Source of the DNA: Verrucomicrobiia bacterium
GTDB lineage: Bacteria; Verrucomicrobiota; Verrucomicrobiia; JADLBR01
Reading direction: 5' to 3'
DNA: 38,462 nucleotides
Assembly: GCA_020847615.1 (NCBI GenBank)
Contig: JADLBR010000319.1
Location: forward strand, 1-38,462
This document shows, piece after piece, positions 12,635-20,623 of the stretch (position 1 is its first letter; each line of letters starts with the position of its first letter). The notes beneath the pieces are model-generated. The model made no database searches. It was not told the origin of the DNA and was given only the letters and a program-made list of their open reading frames with translations. A program made the translations under genes and the position numbers.

Positions 12635-12780
12635 ATTCTCCGGCCCGCGCTATGCATCCCATATGATCCCTGGCGATGAGCGCGGCAGACTGGACACGAT
12701 GTGCGCCATGGCCGTCACCGCACCACCGGGAGGCTGCGTGTGCCTCAGGCTCACGAGTATCCAAGAGTGAGGGCGCGCGG

Positions 12781-14349
12781 ATGAGCCCCCAAGACCTCCG
12801 CGCGCGCCGCGCGCCGGCGCGGGCCTTTCTGCTGGCGCTGCTCGCAGTCGCTCCCGCGCTTTCCCGCGCGGCCACCCCCGATCATCCCAACATACTCCTC
12901 ATCTGCATCGACGACCTGCGGCCCGTTCTCGGTTGTTACGGCGGCGCGGCGAAGACCCCGCACATGGACAAGTTCGCCGGGGAATCCGTCGTATTCCGTC
13001 GCCACTATGTCCAGTTCCCCTCCTGCGGCCCATCGCGCGCCAGCATGCTTGGCGGACGACGACCAGATTCGCTGGGCGTCTATGGCAACAGCGGCACGGA
13101 CATCGTCGCGCAAGACCCGGAGCACATGCCGACCCTGCCGATGCTCTTCAAACGGAACGGCTACACCACGCTCAGTTTCGGCAAGGTGTATCACAGCAAG
13201 GGCGCAAGCCCCGGCTGCGGCTGGTCGGAGCCCCCGTGGCACCCGCCGAATTGGGCCTGCTACGTCAATTTTAAGGAGCGGGAACGCAAGAAGAAGGAAG
13301 GCTGGGAATGGCGGCCCGCCATGGAGATCTACGACGGCCCCGACTCCCTCCATGGCGACTACCAGACCGCCGACCGCGTGATCGCGGCACTGGAGGCGCA
13401 CCGCGATGGCCCTTTCTTTATCGCGGCCGGTTTCTATAAGCCGCACCTCCCCTTCGTGGCACCAAAACGATTCTGGGACCTCTACGGCCCAGACGAGATC
13501 CGGGCAGTCGAGCCCGTTCGTCGCGCCGAGGGCGCAGCCGACTATGGATACGCCTTCCGGGAGATATGCTCCTACGGCGACAATTGCGGCAAGATGTTCA
13601 CGCCGGACGCCATGCCCACCGCCAGGCAAACGCTTGATCTGATACACGCCTACCACGCCGCCACGAGCTTCACCGACTCACACGTGGGTCGCCTTCTGTC
13701 CAAAATCGACGAACTGGGCCTTCGCGAAAATACCGCCGTTGTCCTCTGGTCTGATCACGGCTTCCATCTCGGCGACCAGGCGCGCTGGGCGAAGTGGACG
13801 CAATTCGAGGCCGATATGCGGTCCCCGCTAGTGATCCGCCTGCCGGGGAAGTCCGCACCAGCCCGCGGGACGGACGCGCTCGTCGAGAGCGTGGACATCT
13901 ACCCCACCATCACGTCCATCGCGGGCCTCGCAGCCCCCCCGCATCTGGAGGGCATCAGCCTCCTGCCCTTGATCCGCGGGGAGGTCGACCAGGTGAAGCA
14001 GTTTGCCCGAAGCCAAGTGGCCGGCCTTCAGGCCAATGGCCACCTCATGGCGTACTCCCTGAGGACGCCAGGGTACCGCTATGTCGAATGGCGCGACCGA
14101 ATGCGGCAAAATCAGCTCGTGTGCCGCGAGTTGTATGACCTCGCTTCCGTCGGGCACGAACTCAAGAACCTGGCCGAGGACCCCGGCCAGGAGATGATAG
14201 TGGAACAGCACCACCGGCTGGTCCTCGACGGCTACGCCTCGCTGCAGCGGGATGCGCAACGGCCGCAGGCCAAGCGACAGAAAAAGAGGGCCGGGGCCTC
14301 GACTGCCCCCGAACCCCAACAGCCTCCCAACGAGATCGCCCACCCATGA
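12781..14349 (+). CDS. Secreted sulfatase, iduronate-2-sulfatase-like (S1_7 type)
   Basis: This 522-residue type I sulfatase has a signal peptide (about 1-31, AFLLALLAVAPALSRAA). Metal-binding ICIDD (D44, D45) and the formylglycine site SCGPSRASMLGG (C82 to be oxidised) are present, as are SDHGFHLGDQ and WAKWTQFEADMRSPLVIR. The latter pattern is typical of iduronate-2-sulfatase-like members. It should hydrolyse sulfate esters of polysaccharides outside the cytoplasm and needs a formylglycine-generating enzyme, not in the window. The ATG at 12781 begins the signal peptide; an in-frame ATG at 12676 would bury it. The C-terminus ends in a Lys/Arg- and Pro-rich tail. The stop overlaps the next gene's start as ATGA. 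Confidence 0.92.
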   Translation: MSPQDLRARRAPARAFLLALLAVAPALSRAATPDHPNILLICIDDLRPVLGCYGGAAKTPHMDKFAGESVVFRRHYVQFPSCGPSRASMLGGRRPDSLGVYGNSGTDIVAQDPEHMPTLPMLFKRNGYTTLSFGKVYHSKGASPGCGWSEPPWHPPNWACYVNFKERERKKKEGWEWRPAMEIYDGPDSLHGDYQTADRVIAALEAHRDGPFFIAAGFYKPHLPFVAPKRFWDLYGPDEIRAVEPVRRAEGAADYGYAFREICSYGDNCGKMFTPDAMPTARQTLDLIHAYHAATSFTDSHVGRLLSKIDELGLRENTAVVLWSDHGFHLGDQARWAKWTQFEADMRSPLVIRLPGKSAPARGTDALVESVDIYPTITSIAGLAAPPHLEGISLLPLIRGEVDQVKQFARSQVAGLQANGHLMAYSLRTPGYRYVEWRDRMRQNQLVCRELYDLASVGHELKNLAEDPGQEMIVEQHHRLVLDGYASLQRDAQRPQAKRQKKRAGASTAPEPQQPPNEIAHP

Positions 14350-15836
14350 GAACGTTCCTGGCCGTCGCTTGTTTTCTCAACGCCTCCTGGTTTGCGTGGT
14401 CTGCCGCGGACAAGCCCGACGTCTTAGTGATCCTCACCGACCAGTGGAACCCGCGCCACGTGGGCTGGGACAACCCTGAGGTCCGCACGCCGAATATCGA
14501 CCGGATCGCTGGAGAGGGCATGATCTTCGACGCGTGCTACACGACTTCGCCGGTTTGCATGCCCGCGCGCGTCTCGCTCGTGACCGGCCTCTACCCGCAC
14601 AACCACGGCCACGCGCTGTGGAACAACGCCACCGGCTACTGCATGGCGCCCGAATCGGCGCCCATGTTCCGCGACATCCGGCGCGCGGGATACACCACGG
14701 CGCAGATCGGCAAACTGCACTGGAACTCGGGCGCGGCATGGAAAAGGGACTTCAAGGACGCCGGGGCGTATTACGAGGCGCTCGGACTCGACCAGGTCAT
14801 TGATATCTCGGGTCCGCCCGACTCGGAGAATGGGAGGGGCCCCTATTCCCAACGCATGCGGGAGATGGGCCTCCTGGGCGCGCTGGCTTCCGACCTCAAG
14901 CAGCGCTACCTGAACTGGGAGTTCGAGCCGCGCGTCAGCGTCGTGAAACCCGAGGATTATCACGACAGCTTTGTCACCGGCCTCGCCGCGGACTTCATCC
15001 GCGAGCAACCGAAGGACAAGCCCATGTGCCTCGTCGTCAGCCTGCATTCGCCACACCCGCCGCTCGATGCGCCGGGAGAGTTCGCGACGATGTATGACCC
15101 GGAAAAGCTCACCCTGCCAGCGAACGTGCCGGAGAGCTTCAAGCGAGAGCAAAGGACGCTCGACCGCTCGGAGGTGAAGCGGCTGCTGGCCAATTATCTC
15201 GGCAAGATCGCGCTGGTGGATCAGTGTGTCGGCAGGCTCGCCGAGGCGATGCGCGGACGCGGGACGTGGGATGACGCGCTCGTTATCGTCACCTCGGACC
15301 ACGGCGAGATGATGGGCGCGCACGGCCACCTGACCAAGGGCCGCTTCTACGAGGAATCCGGTCGGGTGCCGCTGGTGGTGCGGTGGCCCGGCCGCGTGAA
15401 GACGGGGCGCACCCCGGCCCTCGCGCAGATGATGGACGTGTACCCCACCATCGTCGAGGCCATCGGCGGCGAGATGGCGCCGGGCCGATTCGCGAGATCG
15501 CTGCTCCCGGTGGCGACGGGCAAGCGCGCGTCGGTCCGCGACCTCGTCATCGGCGAGATCGGCAAGGCGGCGCCGCTGGACATCATGGCCCGCGACGCGC
15601 GATTCAAGTACTGGGCCGATGGGGGCGACGAATTCCTCTTCGACATGCGAAACGACCCACTCGAGATGCGCAACCTCGCCGCCGACCCCGGGCACCGGGA
15701 AACGTTGGGGCAAATGCGGCAGAAACTCCTCTTGCACTTGCGCTCGACCCAGGTGAACTTCGGCGAGGGCTACACGGGCAAGGTCCACCGCATGCGCGAG
15801 GCCGAGGCAAAGAAGTCACCGGAGCGAACCCAATGA
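14346..15836 (+). CDS. Secreted sulfatase (type I)
   Basis: This 496-residue sulfatase has a signal peptide (about 1-20) followed by the strand VLVILTDQWN, the formylglycine site SPVCMPARVSLVTGLYP (C71), and SDHGEMMGAHGHLTKGRFYE. The site is of the CxPxR form with Ala in place of the more common Ser after Pro. It should remove sulfate from a glycan outside the cytoplasm. It starts inside the stop of the preceding sulfatase gene and its own stop overlaps the SGNH hydrolase start in the same ATGA way. The three are therefore probably made together at similar levels and act on the same polymer. Substrate position is unknown. Confidence 0.92.
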   Translation: MRTFLAVACFLNASWFAWSAADKPDVLVILTDQWNPRHVGWDNPEVRTPNIDRIAGEGMIFDACYTTSPVCMPARVSLVTGLYPHNHGHALWNNATGYCMAPESAPMFRDIRRAGYTTAQIGKLHWNSGAAWKRDFKDAGAYYEALGLDQVIDISGPPDSENGRGPYSQRMREMGLLGALASDLKQRYLNWEFEPRVSVVKPEDYHDSFVTGLAADFIREQPKDKPMCLVVSLHSPHPPLDAPGEFATMYDPEKLTLPANVPESFKREQRTLDRSEVKRLLANYLGKIALVDQCVGRLAEAMRGRGTWDDALVIVTSDHGEMMGAHGHLTKGRFYEESGRVPLVVRWPGRVKTGRTPALAQMMDVYPTIVEAIGGEMAPGRFARSLLPVATGKRASVRDLVIGEIGKAAPLDIMARDARFKYWADGGDEFLFDMRNDPLEMRNLAADPGHRETLGQMRQKLLLHLRSTQVNFGEGYTGKVHRMREAEAKKSPERTQ

Positions 15837-16834
15837 AAACGAACCCATCGAACCTGATCCTGGCGGCCCTCATCGGGTTGTTGCCCTGTCCGTCATGGTC
15901 GGAAGATGCGTCGCCTGCGCCGGGCGGGGACCGCGCCCGCCACGTCCTGTTCATCGGGAATAGCTTCACGGCCCGTCACAACCTGTCGCAGGTCGTCAAG
16001 GCGATGGCGGAGGCCGGGCAGCCCGGGCTGAGGTTCGAGGTGACGACCGTGATCTACGGCGGGCGCACGCTCAAGGACCACTGGCGGCTGGGCACGCAGA
16101 ACTTCGTTCGGCTGGCGAGCCTGACCGCGCCGGAGGAGCAGGCGACCATCCAGGCATTGCGCGACGCGATCGCCAAGGATCCCGGCGACAAGTACGCCCC
16201 CCCGGCGCTCGCGCGCCACTTGGAGTTGGCCAAGACCCTCGACCAGCCGAGGCCCAAGTGGGACATCGTCGTCCTCCAGTCCTATCGTGACGACCAGCCG
16301 GGGGCCCAGGCGCCGTACCACGAATACGCACCGAGGTTTGCCGAGTTGATCCGGGGGCAGGGCGCGCGCGTGGTCCTGTACGAGACGACGCCGGACTCCC
16401 AGAATGACAAACCGCTGACCGCGCCGCCGGACCCCGCCCCCGTTCTCGCGAAGGAGCGGGCCATCGCCTCGCTGGCGAAACGCATCGGCGCCACCGTGGT
16501 GCCCATGTCCATGGTGGCGCTGCACTGCCAGACCGCCCGCCCCGATCTGACGCTGCGCTTCGTGAACGATGCCCACTTGAATCAGACGATGGCCTACCTG
16601 ACCGCGTGCACCTTCTACGGGGCGCTCTTCGACCGCAGCCCGGAGGGTTTGCCGGTCGACGCGGTCACCGACATCCGCTGGCTCGATGATCGGCACCGCG
16701 ACAAGGATCGCGATGGCGGCCCCATCACCCGAACGTTTTCGGCGAAGGACCGCGCCGACCTCCAGCGCATCGCGTGGGAGGGCCTGAAGAAATTTCACGA
16801 ACTGGCGCCAGACGGACGGGATCGGGGGCCGTGA
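15833..16834 (+). CDS. Secreted SGNH-type hydrolase (DUF4886-like)
   Basis: This 333-residue protein has a signal peptide (about 1-22) and the start of an SGNH esterase fold, HVLFIGNSFTARHN, with candidate nucleophile S44. The closing catalytic pair fits NDAHLN (D246, H248), followed by YLTACTFYGALFDRSP. This pattern resembles DUF4886-like SGNH hydrolases. Such proteins often deacetylate or de-esterify polysaccharides; here it could remove acyl groups while the two coupled sulfatases remove sulfate. The ATG at 15833 overlaps the sulfatase stop; the longer frame upstream is a shadow. Activity is inferred from the fold and the operon. Confidence 0.82.
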   Translation: MKTNPSNLILAALIGLLPCPSWSEDASPAPGGDRARHVLFIGNSFTARHNLSQVVKAMAEAGQPGLRFEVTTVIYGGRTLKDHWRLGTQNFVRLASLTAPEEQATIQALRDAIAKDPGDKYAPPALARHLELAKTLDQPRPKWDIVVLQSYRDDQPGAQAPYHEYAPRFAELIRGQGARVVLYETTPDSQNDKPLTAPPDPAPVLAKERAIASLAKRIGATVVPMSMVALHCQTARPDLTLRFVNDAHLNQTMAYLTACTFYGALFDRSPEGLPVDAVTDIRWLDDRHRDKDRDGGPITRTFSAKDRADLQRIAWEGLKKFHELAPDGRDRGP

Positions 16835-16887
16835 CGGTGGCCATGAGTGGCTGGAGACGATCCCGGCACCATCAACCCAGACGACCC

Positions 16888-18639
16888 ATGAGATCCCCAC
16901 TCGCCCTAGGAATCGGTCGGACTTGGCCCGACAGATTCCTCTGGATATTTCACAGCCTGCTGGCTGTGAGATTCTGGGCCATCGCGCTCGCCGTCCTCCC
17001 GCTCTCCGCAGCCGACAACCGACCCAACCTCATCCTCTTCCTCATCGACGACCAGAATGCCGAGCAGATCGGCGCCTTCGGCGGGAAGACGTGGACACCC
17101 AACCTGGATCGGCTCGCGGCCGAGGGAATCCAATTCACGCGCGCGCACGTGAGCAGCGCGGTGTGCACGCCGTCGCGCTATTCGTGGATCACGGGCCGCT
17201 ACGCGGGCGCGTCGCACAGCAAGATCTACGGCGACGCCTGCGGCGGACCCGGGCGCCAGGGCTTCCCCAATTTCAACATGGCGCTCGAGCGGGACCGCCT
17301 GAACATCGGGCGCGTCCTGTCCGAGGCGGGCTACGTCACGGGCTTCACGGGCAAGTTTCACCTCGATTCCAAACTCGATTGGCCGGAGTTCTTCGGTGGC
17401 GAGAACGGTTTGAAGGAGATCCCGAAGACCGCCAAGGCCGGCCCCGAGACGAGCGCGATGTTCGCGCACAACGAGCGCGTCATGCGCCGCTACCTCCAGG
17501 CGGTGGGCTTCGCTTGGGCCAAGCACATCTACCCCGAGAACCTGCGCAAGCCCTACCACGAGCACAATCCCGAGTGGACCATCAGCGCCGCCATCGAGTT
17601 TATCGGGGAGAACAAGGACGTCCCCTTCTACCTGCACATCACGCCGACGCTCCTGCACGGCGGCGAGGGCTCGTGGCGCAATTCGATGGACTATCCGCTG
17701 GTGTCCGGCGAGGGGGAGTTGAAGGAACTGCCGGCGGTCATGACGCCGCGCGCGCAGTTGCTTCAGACCCTGAAGGACCATGGCCTTGACCCCGACGGCC
17801 CCGCCGCGGGCGAGGCATGGGTCGACGACGCCGTCGGCGCGGTCGTCAACAAGCTCAAGGCCCTCGGCATCGACAGGAGGACGCTCTTCCTCTTCGCGCC
17901 CGACCACGGGCGCGATGGCAAAGGCTCTCTCTTCCTCCACAACGGCACGCGCATCCCGATGCTCGCGCGCTGGCCCGAGCGCATCCCCGCCGGAACCGTC
18001 TGCGAGGAGTTGGTGCAGAACATCGACTGGGCGCCGACCTGCTTCGACATCGCCGGCGCCAAACCGCCCGACGGCTACCGCACCGACGGCCGCAGCCTCG
18101 CGCCGCTTTTCGCCACCGGCCAAGCGACGCCATGGCGCGACCACCTGTACTTTGAAATGGGCTACGCCCGAGCGGTCGCCACGAAGGACTGGAGCTATGT
18201 GGCGATCCGTTACCCGCGGGAGACGGTCGCGGCCATCCAGGGCGCCAGCCGCGACCGCCTCCCGCGCCTCATGAGCTACATCGGTCGCCTGGGCATCGGC
18301 GTCCGCGGCGCCGAACGCCCCGGCTTCTGGGATGCCGACCAGTTGTACGACCTCGGCGCGGACCCCGGGGAAATCCAGAACCTCGCCGCCGACCCCAAAC
18401 AGGCGGATCGGTTACGGCAGATGCGCGCGATGCTCGCCGCCGACGTGAAATCCATCGGTCGCCCCTTCGGCGAGTTCCTCCCCGGCGGCAATGCCGCCCC
18501 CCCGGGCCAAGTGGATATACAGATCGAGGAGGTCAAAAGTCTCGAGGTCAGCGGCAAGACCGTGGTCGATCCCGAGTCCGACACCCCGGCCCCAGCGAAG
18601 AAGGCCAAGCGCGCGCGCAAGAAAAACGCCGAAGAGTGA
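16888..18639 (+). CDS. Secreted sulfatase (type I) with uncertain N-terminus
   Basis: The mature protein is a type I sulfatase: LILFLIDDQNAEQIGAFGG supplies metal ligands, SSAVCTPSRYSWITG the formylglycine site (C93 from ATG 16888), and APDHGRDGKG the C-terminal metal site. It ends in a Lys/Arg-rich tail. From ATG 16888 the protein has 583 residues and an unusually long leader. Bases 16907-16942 and 16950-16969 of that leader are palindromes, one related to intergenic repeats elsewhere in the window. An in-frame GTG at 16966 gives VRFWAIALAVLPLSAAD, an ordinary signal peptide, and may be the true start (557 residues). Neither start has a clear Shine-Dalgarno. It follows the SGNH gene by 53 bases (131 from the GTG). 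Confidence 0.88.
   Translation: MRSPLALGIGRTWPDRFLWIFHSLLAVRFWAIALAVLPLSAADNRPNLILFLIDDQNAEQIGAFGGKTWTPNLDRLAAEGIQFTRAHVSSAVCTPSRYSWITGRYAGASHSKIYGDACGGPGRQGFPNFNMALERDRLNIGRVLSEAGYVTGFTGKFHLDSKLDWPEFFGGENGLKEIPKTAKAGPETSAMFAHNERVMRRYLQAVGFAWAKHIYPENLRKPYHEHNPEWTISAAIEFIGENKDVPFYLHITPTLLHGGEGSWRNSMDYPLVSGEGELKELPAVMTPRAQLLQTLKDHGLDPDGPAAGEAWVDDAVGAVVNKLKALGIDRRTLFLFAPDHGRDGKGSLFLHNGTRIPMLARWPERIPAGTVCEELVQNIDWAPTCFDIAGAKPPDGYRTDGRSLAPLFATGQATPWRDHLYFEMGYARAVATKDWSYVAIRYPRETVAAIQGASRDRLPRLMSYIGRLGIGVRGAERPGFWDADQLYDLGADPGEIQNLAADPKQADRLRQMRAMLAADVKSIGRPFGEFLPGGNAAPPGQVDIQIEEVKSLEVSGKTVVDPESDTPAPAKKAKRARKKNAEE
16907..16942. repeat. Palindrome of the GTCGGAC family at the 5' end of the third sulfatase gene
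   Basis: The left arm TAGGAATCGGTCGGAC (16907-16922) and right arm GCCCGACAGATTCCTC (16926-16941) are an imperfect inverted repeat with loop TTG. The left arm shares TAGGAAT and CGGAC with the palindrome at 26654-26688. Confidence 0.6.
16950..16969. repeat. Perfect 8-bp hairpin overlapping an alternative GTG start
   Basis: TCACAGCC (16950-16957) and GGCTGTGA (16962-16969) flank a four-base loop TGCT. The GTG at 16966, the alternative sulfatase start, lies in the right arm, so the hairpin could hide or expose that start in mRNA. Confidence 0.55.
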
Positions 18640-18659
18640 GGGGCGGGGAATGTGGGGGG

Positions 18660-18735
18660 CTGATCTTCGCTGATCTCTTCGCCGACCGTGTCCGCTGCTC
18701 CGTGCGTCGGCGAGAGTCCCATCAGCGCAGATCAG
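18660..18735. repeat. Imperfect inverted repeat with CTGAT and CGCTGAT motifs
   Basis: The arm at 18660-18686 (CTGATCTTCGCTGATCT then CTTCGCCGAC) is complementary, with a few gaps, to 18706-18735 (GTCGGCGAGA then CATCAGCGCAGATCAG). ATCAGCG occurs again directly after. It starts 21 bases after the third sulfatase gene and could act as its terminator, though there is no T-run. Confidence 0.6.
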
Positions 18736-18860
18736 CGTCGATCAGCGTTCCCTGGTGCGGTGTCTCGTTTGGTTCTGACACGTCCGCCGGGAGGGCCCGC
18801 GGCCTCGAGGGCCGGGTCGGCCGGGGCACCGCGCATGCTGGTGGCGCGCGGACGCCGGGG

Positions 18861-19073
18861 CGAGGTTGTCTCAAAATCGTCGATAGGCGGCGCCATGGAT
18901 TATGTGTCGCCGACCGCGTCGAGATCGCTTGAAAGGCGCAAGTGTCACTTGCGCACTCCGAAGGCATTCGCGCGCAGCGCCTTGGAGTGCGGCAGTCCCA
19001 CTGCCGCCTTTCAATGGAGATCGACGAACCTCTCGCGATGAGAAGTTTGATTGAAGGTTTTGAGACAACCTCG
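18861..19073. mobile_element. 213-bp non-coding element with 16-bp terminal inverted repeats (MITE-like)
   Basis: CGAGGTTGTCTCAAAA at 18861-18876 is repeated in perfect inverse at 19058-19073. There is no coding sequence between, only the cloverleaf palindrome at 18929-19014. Short length, matched ends and no transposase fit a miniature inverted-repeat element moved by an enzyme encoded elsewhere. No clear target-site duplication is visible. It is the middle of three palindromic blocks in the stretch 18640-19303, which has no gene. Confidence 0.6.
18929..19014. other. 86-base perfect cloverleaf-folding palindrome
   Basis: A 7-bp stem TTGAAAG (18929-18935) with CTTTCAA (19008-19014) encloses three adjacent arms with no unpaired bases at the junction. 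Arm A (18936-18954) pairs GCGCAAGT with ACTTGCGC around a three-base loop. Arm B (18955-18988) pairs ACTCCGAAGGC with GCCTTGGAGT, one bulged G, around a 13-base loop. Arm C (18989-19007) pairs GCGGCAGT with ACTGCCGC around a three-base loop. It is not a tRNA: arm loops are too short and there is no T-loop consensus or anticodon arm. Confidence 0.7.
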
Positions 19074-19090
19074 GGTCGGCGGCGCGCGCC

Positions 19091-19131
19091 TAGCAGCCTG
19101 TCGGACTTAGCCAAGTCCGACAAGGCTGCTA
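19091..19131. repeat. GTCGGAC-family hairpin with an 18-bp stem
   Basis: TAGCAGCCTGTCGGACTT (19091-19108) pairs with AAGTCCGACAAGGCTGCTA (19113-19131) with one bulged base and a four-base loop. It begins with TAG and ends with CTA, as does the copy at 26654-26688. It forms the left edge of a larger symmetrical block. Confidence 0.7.
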
Positions 19132-19135
19132 GAAA

Positions 19136-19263
19136 GCAAAACCGCCTTATTCCAAGGCAGTTATGATTGGCCAGACCCAGATGCGGCACCGTGCCTGAAC
19201 GACTGCAACGAATCGTGCTCTCGTTGCATAACTCCTTTGTTCGCAAATAGAAGGCGGTTTTGC
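19136..19263. repeat. 128-base structured inverted repeat between two GTCGGAC hairpins
   Basis: GCAAAACCGCCTT (19136-19148) is perfectly inverted at 19251-19263. Inside, CAAGGCAGTTATG is nearly inverted as CATAACTCCTTTG, and two small hairpins follow (GGCAC/GTGCC at 19185-19195; TGCAACGA/TCGTTGCA at 19204-19228). No open frame in it looks coding. It could be a transposon remnant, a miniature element or a structured RNA. Confidence 0.55.
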
Positions 19264-19266
19264 CAG

Positions 19267-19299
19267 AGGAGGCTGCCGGACAAAGTCCGACAGCCTCCT
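19267..19299. terminator. GTCGGAC-family hairpin, possible terminator of the pectate-lyase-like gene
   Basis: AGGAGGCTGCCGGAC (19267-19281) pairs with GTCCGACAGCCTCCT (19285-19299) with one mismatch and a three-base loop. It lies four bases past the stop of the pectate-lyase-like gene on the minus strand. There is no T-run, so a terminator role is inferred from stem strength and position only. Confidence 0.5.
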
Positions 19300-19303
19300 A
19301 GGC

Positions 19304-20623
19304 TCAGGGTTGCCTCGGGCGCGTGGCTTCGGGGACCTCGGACTCGGAGTGGATGATCTTCCCGCCGCCGGAGCGCGCCGCCTCGATGAGCCTGCGGTCG
19401 GTGGCATCGCGGTCCCAGGGGCGAGCGCCCGCATTCGCGAGCACCCACGCGGTGGTCTCGTGGGCCGGGCGCGCCTTGAGCCGCGGCGGCCACATGGGTG
19501 GGGAATCGATCAACCGCACACCATCGCCGCCACCGGCGGCGGTCGACCGAGGCCGTTCCGCTGAAGCGTCCGGATCGATCGGCAGGGCCGTGCCATCGGC
19601 GTCGAAGAAGAGGTTGTCGCGGAGGTGAAGGTCGCAGGGTCCCTTGGCGCCGATGAACGCGGTCCCGGGCGCGGTGCTGGGCCCCTTGCGCGCCACATTG
19701 CCGACGATGGCCATCGCGCCGCGCTGCCACTCGTGGCCCTCCCACTCCCCCTCGACGAGCGCGAAATGCATCGCCCGGCGGCCGGGGTTGTGGACGAGGT
19801 TGTTGACCACGACGCCGCGGGCACCGCCCTTGAAGAGCGGGTTGCGATCGTCGTTGCTGATATAGAGGTTGCCGATGATCGCGATATCGGTCGTGTTGTC
19901 GTGCACGAGCGATCCCTTCGAGTGCGGTCCCTTGCGATGGGTGGAGTCGTGAAGGCCCTCGCCAACGATGCAGTGGCTGAACGTGATGCGGTGCGAGGTG
20001 TTCTTGCGCCACTCGTCCGGCGTGTCCCCCTCGAAGCGCGGCCCGGAGGCGCTCAGGTTTTCATCGGTGGCCCACGTGATCGAGCAGTGATCGACGATCA
20101 CATCGTGCGCGCCGACGGTCGCCAGGCCGTCGATCTCCCAGCCGCTTTTCTTCGGGCGCCCGCCGGCGCCGGGACGGATCCGGATGTGCCGGACGATCAC
20201 ATCGTTCGTGGCGATCCCGATGCCGCCATTCACGAGCGTGATGCCCGGGCTCGGCGCCGTCTCGCCCGCGATCGTGACGCGCGGTTCCTTCACTTGAAGC
20301 GAATGCCCGCCAAGGTCGATCGTACCGGCGACCGCGAACGAGATGACGTGTGGGCCCTTTGCGGCCAGCGCCTCGGCGAGCGAGCCCGGCCCGCGCTCGG
20401 CAAGCGTGGTCACCGGGATGATCCGGCCGCCCTCGCCGCCGCGCGTCGCCGTCCATCCGGGCGGCACAACCCAGCGCTCCTTGGCGTCCGGTCCGAAGCA
20501 AGCGACGACCGCGCCGCATGCGAGGACGATCCCCGCGATCACGGCGGGAAAAGCGGGCCGAGAACCGGTGGCAACCGCAGCCGATGCGCCGGTCTTGGGT
20601 GAGGAGTTGCGCTCTGTCGTCAT
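19304..20623 (-). CDS. Exported pectate-lyase-like parallel beta-helix protein
   Basis: This 439-residue protein has an N-terminal hydrophobic segment (about 26-43) with Cys residues that could form a lipobox (VLAC), then a right-handed beta-helix of the PL1/pectate-lyase type. Characteristic stretches are VTIAGETAPSPGITL, NDVIVRHIRIRPGAG, HDVIVDHCSITWATDE, and the lower coil NLYISNDDRNPLFKGG followed by VVVNNLVHNPGRRAMHF. These fit pectate-lyase-like proteins of the PVC and Bacteroidetes groups. It would cleave an acidic polysaccharide by beta-elimination, producing the unsaturated ends that GH88-type enzymes remove. Catalytic residues could not be assigned with certainty. It diverges from the LVIVD lipoprotein gene across 182 bases that hold no convincing promoter. 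Confidence 0.85.
   Translation of the reverse strand: MTTERNSSPKTGASAAVATGSRPAFPAVIAGIVLACGAVVACFGPDAKERWVVPPGWTATRGGEGGRIIPVTTLAERGPGSLAEALAAKGPHVISFAVAGTIDLGGHSLQVKEPRVTIAGETAPSPGITLVNGGIGIATNDVIVRHIRIRPGAGGRPKKSGWEIDGLATVGAHDVIVDHCSITWATDENLSASGPRFEGDTPDEWRKNTSHRITFSHCIVGEGLHDSTHRKGPHSKGSLVHDNTTDIAIIGNLYISNDDRNPLFKGGARGVVVNNLVHNPGRRAMHFALVEGEWEGHEWQRGAMAIVGNVARKGPSTAPGTAFIGAKGPCDLHLRDNLFFDADGTALPIDPDASAERPRSTAAGGGDGVRLIDSPPMWPPRLKARPAHETTAWVLANAGARPWDRDATDRRLIEAARSGGGKIIHSESEVPEATRPRQP

What the first reader, a model, noticed from the sequence alone, without database searches (positions are those of the whole stretch)
18861..19073. MITE-like element with a perfect cloverleaf core
16-bp perfect terminal inverted repeats enclose an 86-base block that folds as a four-way junction: a 7-bp closing stem and three abutting arms with 8, 10 and 8 pairs. 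The symmetry is far beyond chance and there is no tRNA signature. It could be a mobile element, a recombination or protein-binding site as cruciform DNA, or a structured RNA.
Basis: partly seen in the sequence, partly recalled or inferred. Interest (0 to 1): 0.68.

Follow-up and report, generated by a model that had tools for sequence, protein, structure and literature searches.

The report
REP-pair cloverleaf inside an IS1182-type MITE
A 211-bp non-coding mobile element, with ends like those of IS1182-family transposons, sits in the loop of a palindromic repeat; its 'cloverleaf' core is an inverted pair of REP repeats whose relatives flank a REP-type transposase gene in the same genome, so each piece is of a known kind and only the nested combination is unusual.

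Summary
The structure is real and correctly described: near-perfect 15-16 bp terminal repeats and an 86-nt core folding as a four-way junction (z about -9). The core is a tail-to-tail dimer of GGAG-tagged REP hairpins (REPIN-like). The REP family has 58 copies against 7 in a control scan of this genome; 32 distinct tail-to-tail dimers were found, and a heterodimer of the same two subtypes flanks a REP-associated tyrosine transposase (RAYT) on contig C189 of the same genome. Bertels & Rainey already drew this 'clover' fold of REPINs. The terminal repeats (GAGGYTGTCTCAAAA) are those of an IS1182-family element in Runella zeae and of ~200-bp MITEs in four phyla. In a same-genus genome such MITEs sit in the 4-nt loop of a GC-rich palindromic repeat and duplicate exactly that loop; the window copy fits (GGGC/GGGT), and an empty target lies 40 bp upstream. 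The full element occurs once per genome in two species (79% identical, different loci). Between these copies the fold is not better conserved than random (17 broken pairs against 19.7 +/- 2.2; one arm loses 3 of 8 uncompensated), so a selected RNA is not supported. Mobile-element reading right; new combination of known parts.

The parts
18790..18821 (+). Empty copy of the target: GGAG + GC-rich hairpin GGCCCGCG-GCCT-CGAGGGCC + GGGTCGGC
   Evidence: same consensus GGGAGGGCCCGCGGCCTCGCGGGCCGGGTYGGC as 16 other empty copies and 18 reconstructed target sites in the genus
18843..18857 (+). Left stem of the palindrome into which the element is inserted (GGCGCGCGGACGCCG)
   Evidence: (I2), 74: with one TSD copy removed the flanks fold as a 13-bp hairpin (8+5) with 4-nt loop GGGC, -19.8 kcal/mol (DNA)
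18858..18861 (+). Left target-site duplication / palindrome loop GGGC
18862..18876 (+). Left terminal inverted repeat GAGGTTGTCTCAAAA
   Evidence: IS1182-family end in Runella zeae is GAGGCTGTCTCAAAA
18929..18935 (+). 5' side of the 7-bp closing stem
18936..18954 (-). Left REP hairpin, GCGCAAGT-type, in reverse orientation
18955..18959 (-). Tag of left REP (ACTCC, reverse complement of GGAGT); 5' strand of the middle arm
18960..18983 (.). 24-nt spacer between the two tags (rest of the middle arm and its loop)
   Evidence: the same 24-nt tag-to-tag spacing in other dimers of the same-genus genome (L248, L252, L254, L264; 25 nt in L260)
18984..18988 (+). Tag of right REP (GGAGT); 3' strand of the middle arm
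18989..19007 (+). Right REP hairpin, GCGGCAGT-type
19008..19014 (+). 3' side of the closing stem
19058..19072 (-). Right terminal inverted repeat
19073..19076 (+). Right target-site duplication GGGT (one difference from GGGC)
19077..19090 (+). Right stem of the interrupted palindrome (CGGCGGCGCGCGCC)

Best explanation
The feature is a non-autonomous mobile element (MITE, 211 bp, 18862-19072) with IS1182-type ends, inserted into the 4-nt loop of a GC-rich palindromic repeat in the intergenic stretch between a sulfatase gene and a converging gene. SHOWN by sequence: the ends, the interrupted palindrome, a 4-bp duplication that equals the palindrome's loop (exact in sister insertions, 3 of 4 bases here), a homologue at another locus in a second species, and IS1182 transposons elsewhere with these ends. 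Its interior carries a tail-to-tail pair of GGAG-tagged REP hairpins; each REP folds on itself (arms 1 and 3), the two tags and spacer ends pair (arm 2) and the REP tails close the base, which is the 'clover' fold of a REPIN. SHOWN: REP family membership, many similar dimers, and a heterodimer of the same two subtypes next to a RAYT gene in the same genome. INFERRED: the MITE was moved by an IS1182-family DDE transposase that picks hairpins as targets; the REP pair was deposited or copied by the RAYT; the cloverleaf is a by-product of REP palindromy (a single-stranded-DNA recognition structure at most), not a selected RNA.
For: TIRs: 21 stretches with paired GAGGYTGTCTCARAA ends 165-195 bp apart in Chlorobi, Bacteroidota, Clostridia and Verrucomicrobiota; about 59 such ends in the same-genus genome and none of the reversed control pattern; the same ends bound an IS1182-family transposase gene in Runella zeae (left GAGGCTGTCTCAAAAG, right GAGGCCGTCTCAAAAG, several copies with different flanks). 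Insertion in loops: 19 of 36 candidate pairs have an exact 4-bp duplication, none at 5-9 bp; 18 reconstructed targets match the consensus of 17 empty copies, in both orientations. Mobility: full-length homologue in G001 with non-homologous flanks. REP core: 58 REP matches vs 7 control in the own genome, 43 vs 10 in G001; 118 of 125 distinct tag-anchored sequences carry at least 6 of 8 stem pairs vs 9 of 125 shuffled, with compensating changes at stem positions 5-8; 32 tail-to-tail dimers with spacings mostly 24/47/50-51/83; own-genome RAYT (L002:1594-2208, NCBIfam REP_Tyr_transpos E 1.9e-22) flanked by a GCGGCAGT/GCGCAAGT heterodimer and a further REP; two more RAYT loci of this layout in other genomes of the class.
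Against: Only one full copy per genome; the cognate IS (exact TIR) was not found in this genus, where the IS1182 elements seen have GAGTCTGTCGAAAAA ends (12 of 15 identical). The window duplication is imperfect (GGGC/GGGT). Some G001 copies share extended flanks or are nested, so the 18 sites are not 18 independent events. The Bacteroidota/Chlorobi copies show no 4-bp duplication. The RAYT scores 79.7 bits against a cut-off of 80. The tag is GGAG, not the canonical GTAG.
Confidence: 0.8

Rival explanations
1. A structured, functional RNA (or RNA control element at gene 3' ends) whose cloverleaf is selected.
For: Very stable fold (z about -9); closing stem, arm 2 and arm 3 remain pairable in the G001 homologue; convergent 3'-end location.
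Against: Arm 1 loses 3 of 8 pairs uncompensated; broken pairs 17 vs 19.7 +/- 2.2 expected (P 0.17), compensated 2 vs 1.4 (P 0.41); no Rfam match; a full alternative hairpin is about equally stable; one copy per genome.
Confidence: 0.06
2. The whole TIR element, not just the core, is moved by an HUH tyrosine transposase (a TIRtron/TIRYT-derived element); the TIRs are HUH substrates.
For: RAYT-like genes flanked by long TIRs are described (PMC3733652); the genus has several Y1-type transposase genes; REPs lie inside the element.
Against: The same TIRs bound a DDE IS1182 transposase in Runella zeae; a short staggered duplication is typical of DDE, not HUH, transposition (general knowledge); no Y1 gene examined was seen flanked by these TIRs.
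Confidence: 0.07
3. A passive mosaic: a REP pair inserted into a dead MITE relic, and nothing here has moved as a unit with the REP pair inside.
For: One copy per genome; REP dimers exist outside MITEs; the region is a mosaic of palindromes.
Against: The G001 copy has the same composite layout with different flanks (79% identity over 212 bp), so the composite moved, or was inherited at a since-rearranged locus, at least once.
Confidence: 0.2

Closest known systems
REPIN (REP doublet forming hairpins), Bertels & Rainey 2011, PMC3116915; GTAG-REP tail-tail dimers, Di Nocera et al. 2013, PMC3733652
   Same: Two short tagged palindromes in inverted orientation with a spacer, dispersed, with a RAYT gene flanked by the same REPs; the clover fold is named in Fig. 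S11 of PMC3116915; GTAG repeats are reported as abundant in the verrucomicrobium Opitutus terrae.
   Different: Tag is GGAG rather than GTAG; heterodimer of two REP subtypes; 24-nt spacer; sits inside a TIR element.
IS1182-family insertion sequences and IS1272 structure-dependent transposition (PMC5678879)
   Same: 16-bp-class TIRs, hairpin targets; the loop-only duplication seen here is pathway 'c' of the model drawn for IS1272.
   Different: IS1272 itself replaces the stem-loop without duplication; here the loop is duplicated and the element lacks a transposase gene.
IS elements that target REP sequences (IS1397, ISKpn1, ISPpu9, ISRm22 and others; Tobes & Pareja 2006, PMC1525189)
   Same: Insertion at a fixed position in a palindromic repeat; ISRm22 at the palindromy axis.
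   Different: Those are full ISs of the IS3, IS110, IS4, IS256 and IS5 families; here a MITE with IS1182-type ends in Verrucomicrobiota.
Anabaena variabilis GTAG-15 dimers inside long palindromes (PMC3733652)
   Same: REP dimers regularly nested inside a longer palindromic element.
   Different: The passage read does not tie that outer palindrome to an IS family.

Membership tests
REPIN / REP-RAYT system (core only) | Two REPs in inverted orientation with short spacer | tested here: met
REPIN / REP-RAYT system (core only) | REP hairpin next to a conserved tetranucleotide tag (GTAG type) | tested here: inconclusive
   Tag is consistently GGAG (GGAC in some relatives), not GTAG; 118/125 tag-anchored sequences carry the hairpin
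REPIN / REP-RAYT system (core only) | Dispersed, many copies | tested here: met
   58 vs 7 control in own genome, 43 vs 10 in G001; matches in 42 of 384 genomes of the class
REPIN / REP-RAYT system (core only) | RAYT gene flanked by the same REPs in the same genome | tested here: met
   L002 (G000:C189): heterodimer of the same two subtypes, RAYT ORF 1594-2208, further REP
REPIN / REP-RAYT system (core only) | Mobilised as single-stranded DNA by the RAYT | not testable with these tools
   Needs biochemistry
MITE with IS1182-type ends (whole element) | Short, TIR-bounded, without transposase gene | tested here: met
   211 bp
MITE with IS1182-type ends (whole element) | TIRs match those of an autonomous IS1182-family element | tested here: met
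   Runella zeae IS1182 ends GAGGCTGTCTCAAAA / GAGGCCGTCTCAAAA vs GAGGTTGTCTCAAAA
MITE with IS1182-type ends (whole element) | Autonomous partner with matching ends in the same genome | tested here: inconclusive
   IS1182 genes present, but with GAGTCTGTCGAAAAA ends; genome is a fragmented MAG
MITE with IS1182-type ends (whole element) | Target-site duplication | tested here: inconclusive
   GGGC/GGGT in the window (3 of 4); exact 4 bp in 19 of 36 candidate pairs of the set
MITE with IS1182-type ends (whole element) | Multiple copies in the genome | tested here: not met
   One copy in G000, one full copy in G001; other MITEs with the same TIRs are multicopy in G001. So the claim is MITE-type anatomy, not a multicopy MITE family in this genome
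Known structured RNA (Rfam) / tRNA-like | Match to a covariance model or tRNA model | tested here: not met
Selected structured RNA | Compensating changes in full-length homologues | tested here: not met
   (only two copies, low power)

The most novel reading that the evidence does not exclude
The element is a working composite: a MITE movable by an IS1182-type DDE transposase that carries a REPIN movable by a RAYT, and it lands in the loops of other palindromic repeats, so two unrelated transposases (double-strand DDE and single-strand HUH) drive one self-nesting population of hairpins; the clover-forming core would be kept because it is the RAYT-recognised fold. A sibling 184-bp MITE with the same TIRs in G001 also has a core of three abutting hairpins of unrelated sequence, which would fit.
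Probability: 0.12. Interest if true: 0.65.

Novelty: new variant of a known kind. Interest (0 to 1): 0.42.

Why it matters
It explains a striking cloverleaf without invoking a new RNA, ties a REP family with an unusual tag to a RAYT gene in a verrucomicrobial genome, and shows MITEs with IS1182-type ends that duplicate exactly the loop of a hairpin target, an outcome drawn as a possible branch of the IS1272 model. Such sites would let the hairpin-directed insertion model be tested directly.

Tried and rejected
tRNA and Rfam scans: nothing. TIR sought elsewhere in the own genome: only this pair. Plasmids and phages: no similar DNA. IMG/VR scan with the TIR: scattered single hits, no IS. First check of Y1 transposase genes found by Pfam PF01797 showed no GGAG REPs beside them; the REP-flanked RAYT was found only by tblastn of those proteins against all fetched loci. 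DDE_Tnp_1 search in the genus gave IS1182 elements with related but not identical ends. Orthologous empty site in G001: the nearest homologue of the downstream gene is only 45-52% identical and no sulfatase was found in the 4 kb fetched around it, so no syntenic test was possible. A first attempt to compare clover and long hairpin used wrong constraints and was discarded; one search replaces it. TIR text search in papers found nothing on an IS or MITE in the listed titles. Integron attC and tRNA-derived readings dropped for lack of their signatures (from general knowledge, not tested by model).

Full report
Observation. The element proper is 18862-19072 (211 bp, 15-bp TIRs GAGGTTGTCTCAAAA); the outer C/G pair belongs to a probable target duplication GGGC (18858-18861) / GGGT (19073-19076). 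It lies in the intergenic stretch between a sulfatase gene (16774-18639, Pfam Sulfatase) and a converging open frame on the minus strand (19304-20623).

What the core is. The two outer arms are members of one dispersed repeat family: a GGAG tag followed by a short GC-rich hairpin. A tag-anchored collection gave 125 distinct sequences, of which 118 carry at least 6 of 8 stem pairs (9 of 125 after shuffling), with exchange of pair types at stem positions 5-8. The own genome has 58 matches against 7 for the reversed pattern, G001 43 against 10; similar sequences occur in 42 of 384 genomes of the class. In the window two such REPs stand tail to tail, tags inside, 24 nt apart; the tags pair with each other to make the middle arm and the REP tails close the base. 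Thirty-two distinct tail-to-tail dimers were collected, with spacers clustering at 24, 47, 50-51 and 83 nt. On contig C189 of the same genome a heterodimer of the same two subtypes (GCGGCAGT and GCGCAAGT) and a further REP flank an open frame that matches NCBIfam's REP-associated tyrosine transposase (E 1.9e-22, 79.7 bits, cut-off 80); two other genomes of the class show the same layout. That is the layout of a REPIN with its RAYT. Bertels & Rainey (PMC3116915) already name a 'clover' configuration of REPINs beside the long hairpin. In the window the two are nearly equal in energy, because the two REPs differ in sequence and the long hairpin has mismatches.

What the outer element is. The whole 211-bp element has one homologue, in the same-genus genome G001 (79% identity, flanks not homologous). 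Paired GAGGYTGTCTCARAA ends about 200 bp apart occur in Chlorobi, Bacteroidota and Clostridia too, with unrelated interiors between phyla. In Runella zeae the same ends bound IS1182-family transposase genes. G001 has about 59 such ends (control 0). There the MITEs, mostly 184 bp, sit in the 4-nt loop of a GC-rich palindromic repeat, GGGAGGGCCCGCG-GCCT-CGCGGGCCGGGTYGGC, and the loop is present on both sides: 19 of 36 candidate pairs have an exact 4-bp duplication and none have 5-9 bp; 18 reconstructed targets match the consensus of 17 empty copies. Both orientations and several MITE types occur, and some insertions are nested in other elements, so there were several events, though probably fewer than 18. 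The window copy interrupts a palindrome (GGCGCGCGgaCGCCG / CGGCGgCGCGCGCC) at its GGGC loop, and about 40 bp upstream lies an empty copy of the target repeat (18790-18821). Loop-only duplication is one branch of the structure-dependent model drawn for IS1272, itself placed in the IS1182 family (PMC5678879).

Is the fold selected? Mapping the window fold on the G001 homologue gives 58 unchanged, 7 one-sided, 2 compensated and 17 broken pairs; random placement of the same 41 substitutions gives 19.7 +/- 2.2 broken and 1.4 compensated. The closing stem and arms 2 and 3 are intact or pairable, arm 1 loses 3 of 8 pairs. With two copies the test is weak, but it gives no support for a selected RNA. 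The compensating changes in REP stems belong to the REP family, whose hairpins are held to be transposase substrates (PMC3733652), not to this element.

What is shown and what is inferred. Shown: anatomy, family membership of core and ends, interrupted palindrome, homologue elsewhere, RAYT with matching REPs. Inferred: which enzyme moved the element (an exact-TIR IS1182 was not found in this genus; those present differ at 3 of 15 positions), the order of events, and whether the composite still moves. The genome is a 592-contig assembly, so absence of the partner IS is weak evidence.

Verdict. Ordinary parts in an unusual nest: a MITE with IS1182-type ends, in a hairpin loop, carrying a REPIN. 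New variant of known kinds; interest moderate.

Noticed in passing
window 19090-19301: A second MITE-like element abuts the first: ends CTAG-CAGCCTGTCGGACTT, CTAG on both sides; nearly the same end sequence bounds an IS1182-family transposase gene in the same-genus genome (L217).
   Followed up: partly
window 18659-18746: Another inverted repeat (GCTGATCTTCGCTGATCT / AGATCAGCGTCGATCAGC, 18-nt arms, 52 nt apart) in the same intergenic stretch.
   Followed up: no
L162:1499-1682 (G392:C43): The 184-bp sibling MITE with the same TIR type also has a core of three abutting hairpins (8, 6 and 8 bp) of unrelated sequence.
   Followed up: partly
L081-L101: In Bacteroidota and other phyla many of the ~200-bp MITEs have an A-tract before or a T-tract after the TIRs and no 4-bp duplication, as if the MITE had replaced the stem-loop of an intrinsic terminator.
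   Followed up: partly
L273, L278, L282, L286, L289 (Runella zeae): The IS1182 element ends are themselves followed by an inverted copy of the TIR, giving terminator-like hairpins at both IS ends.
   Followed up: no
L158-L197 (G392): MITEs nested within MITEs: outer elements contain the palindromic target that another copy has entered (for example L160 1204-1759 around 1360-1543).
   Followed up: partly
window 12676-18639: Three sulfatase-like open frames on the plus strand upstream of the element (only the third was checked against Pfam).
   Followed up: partly
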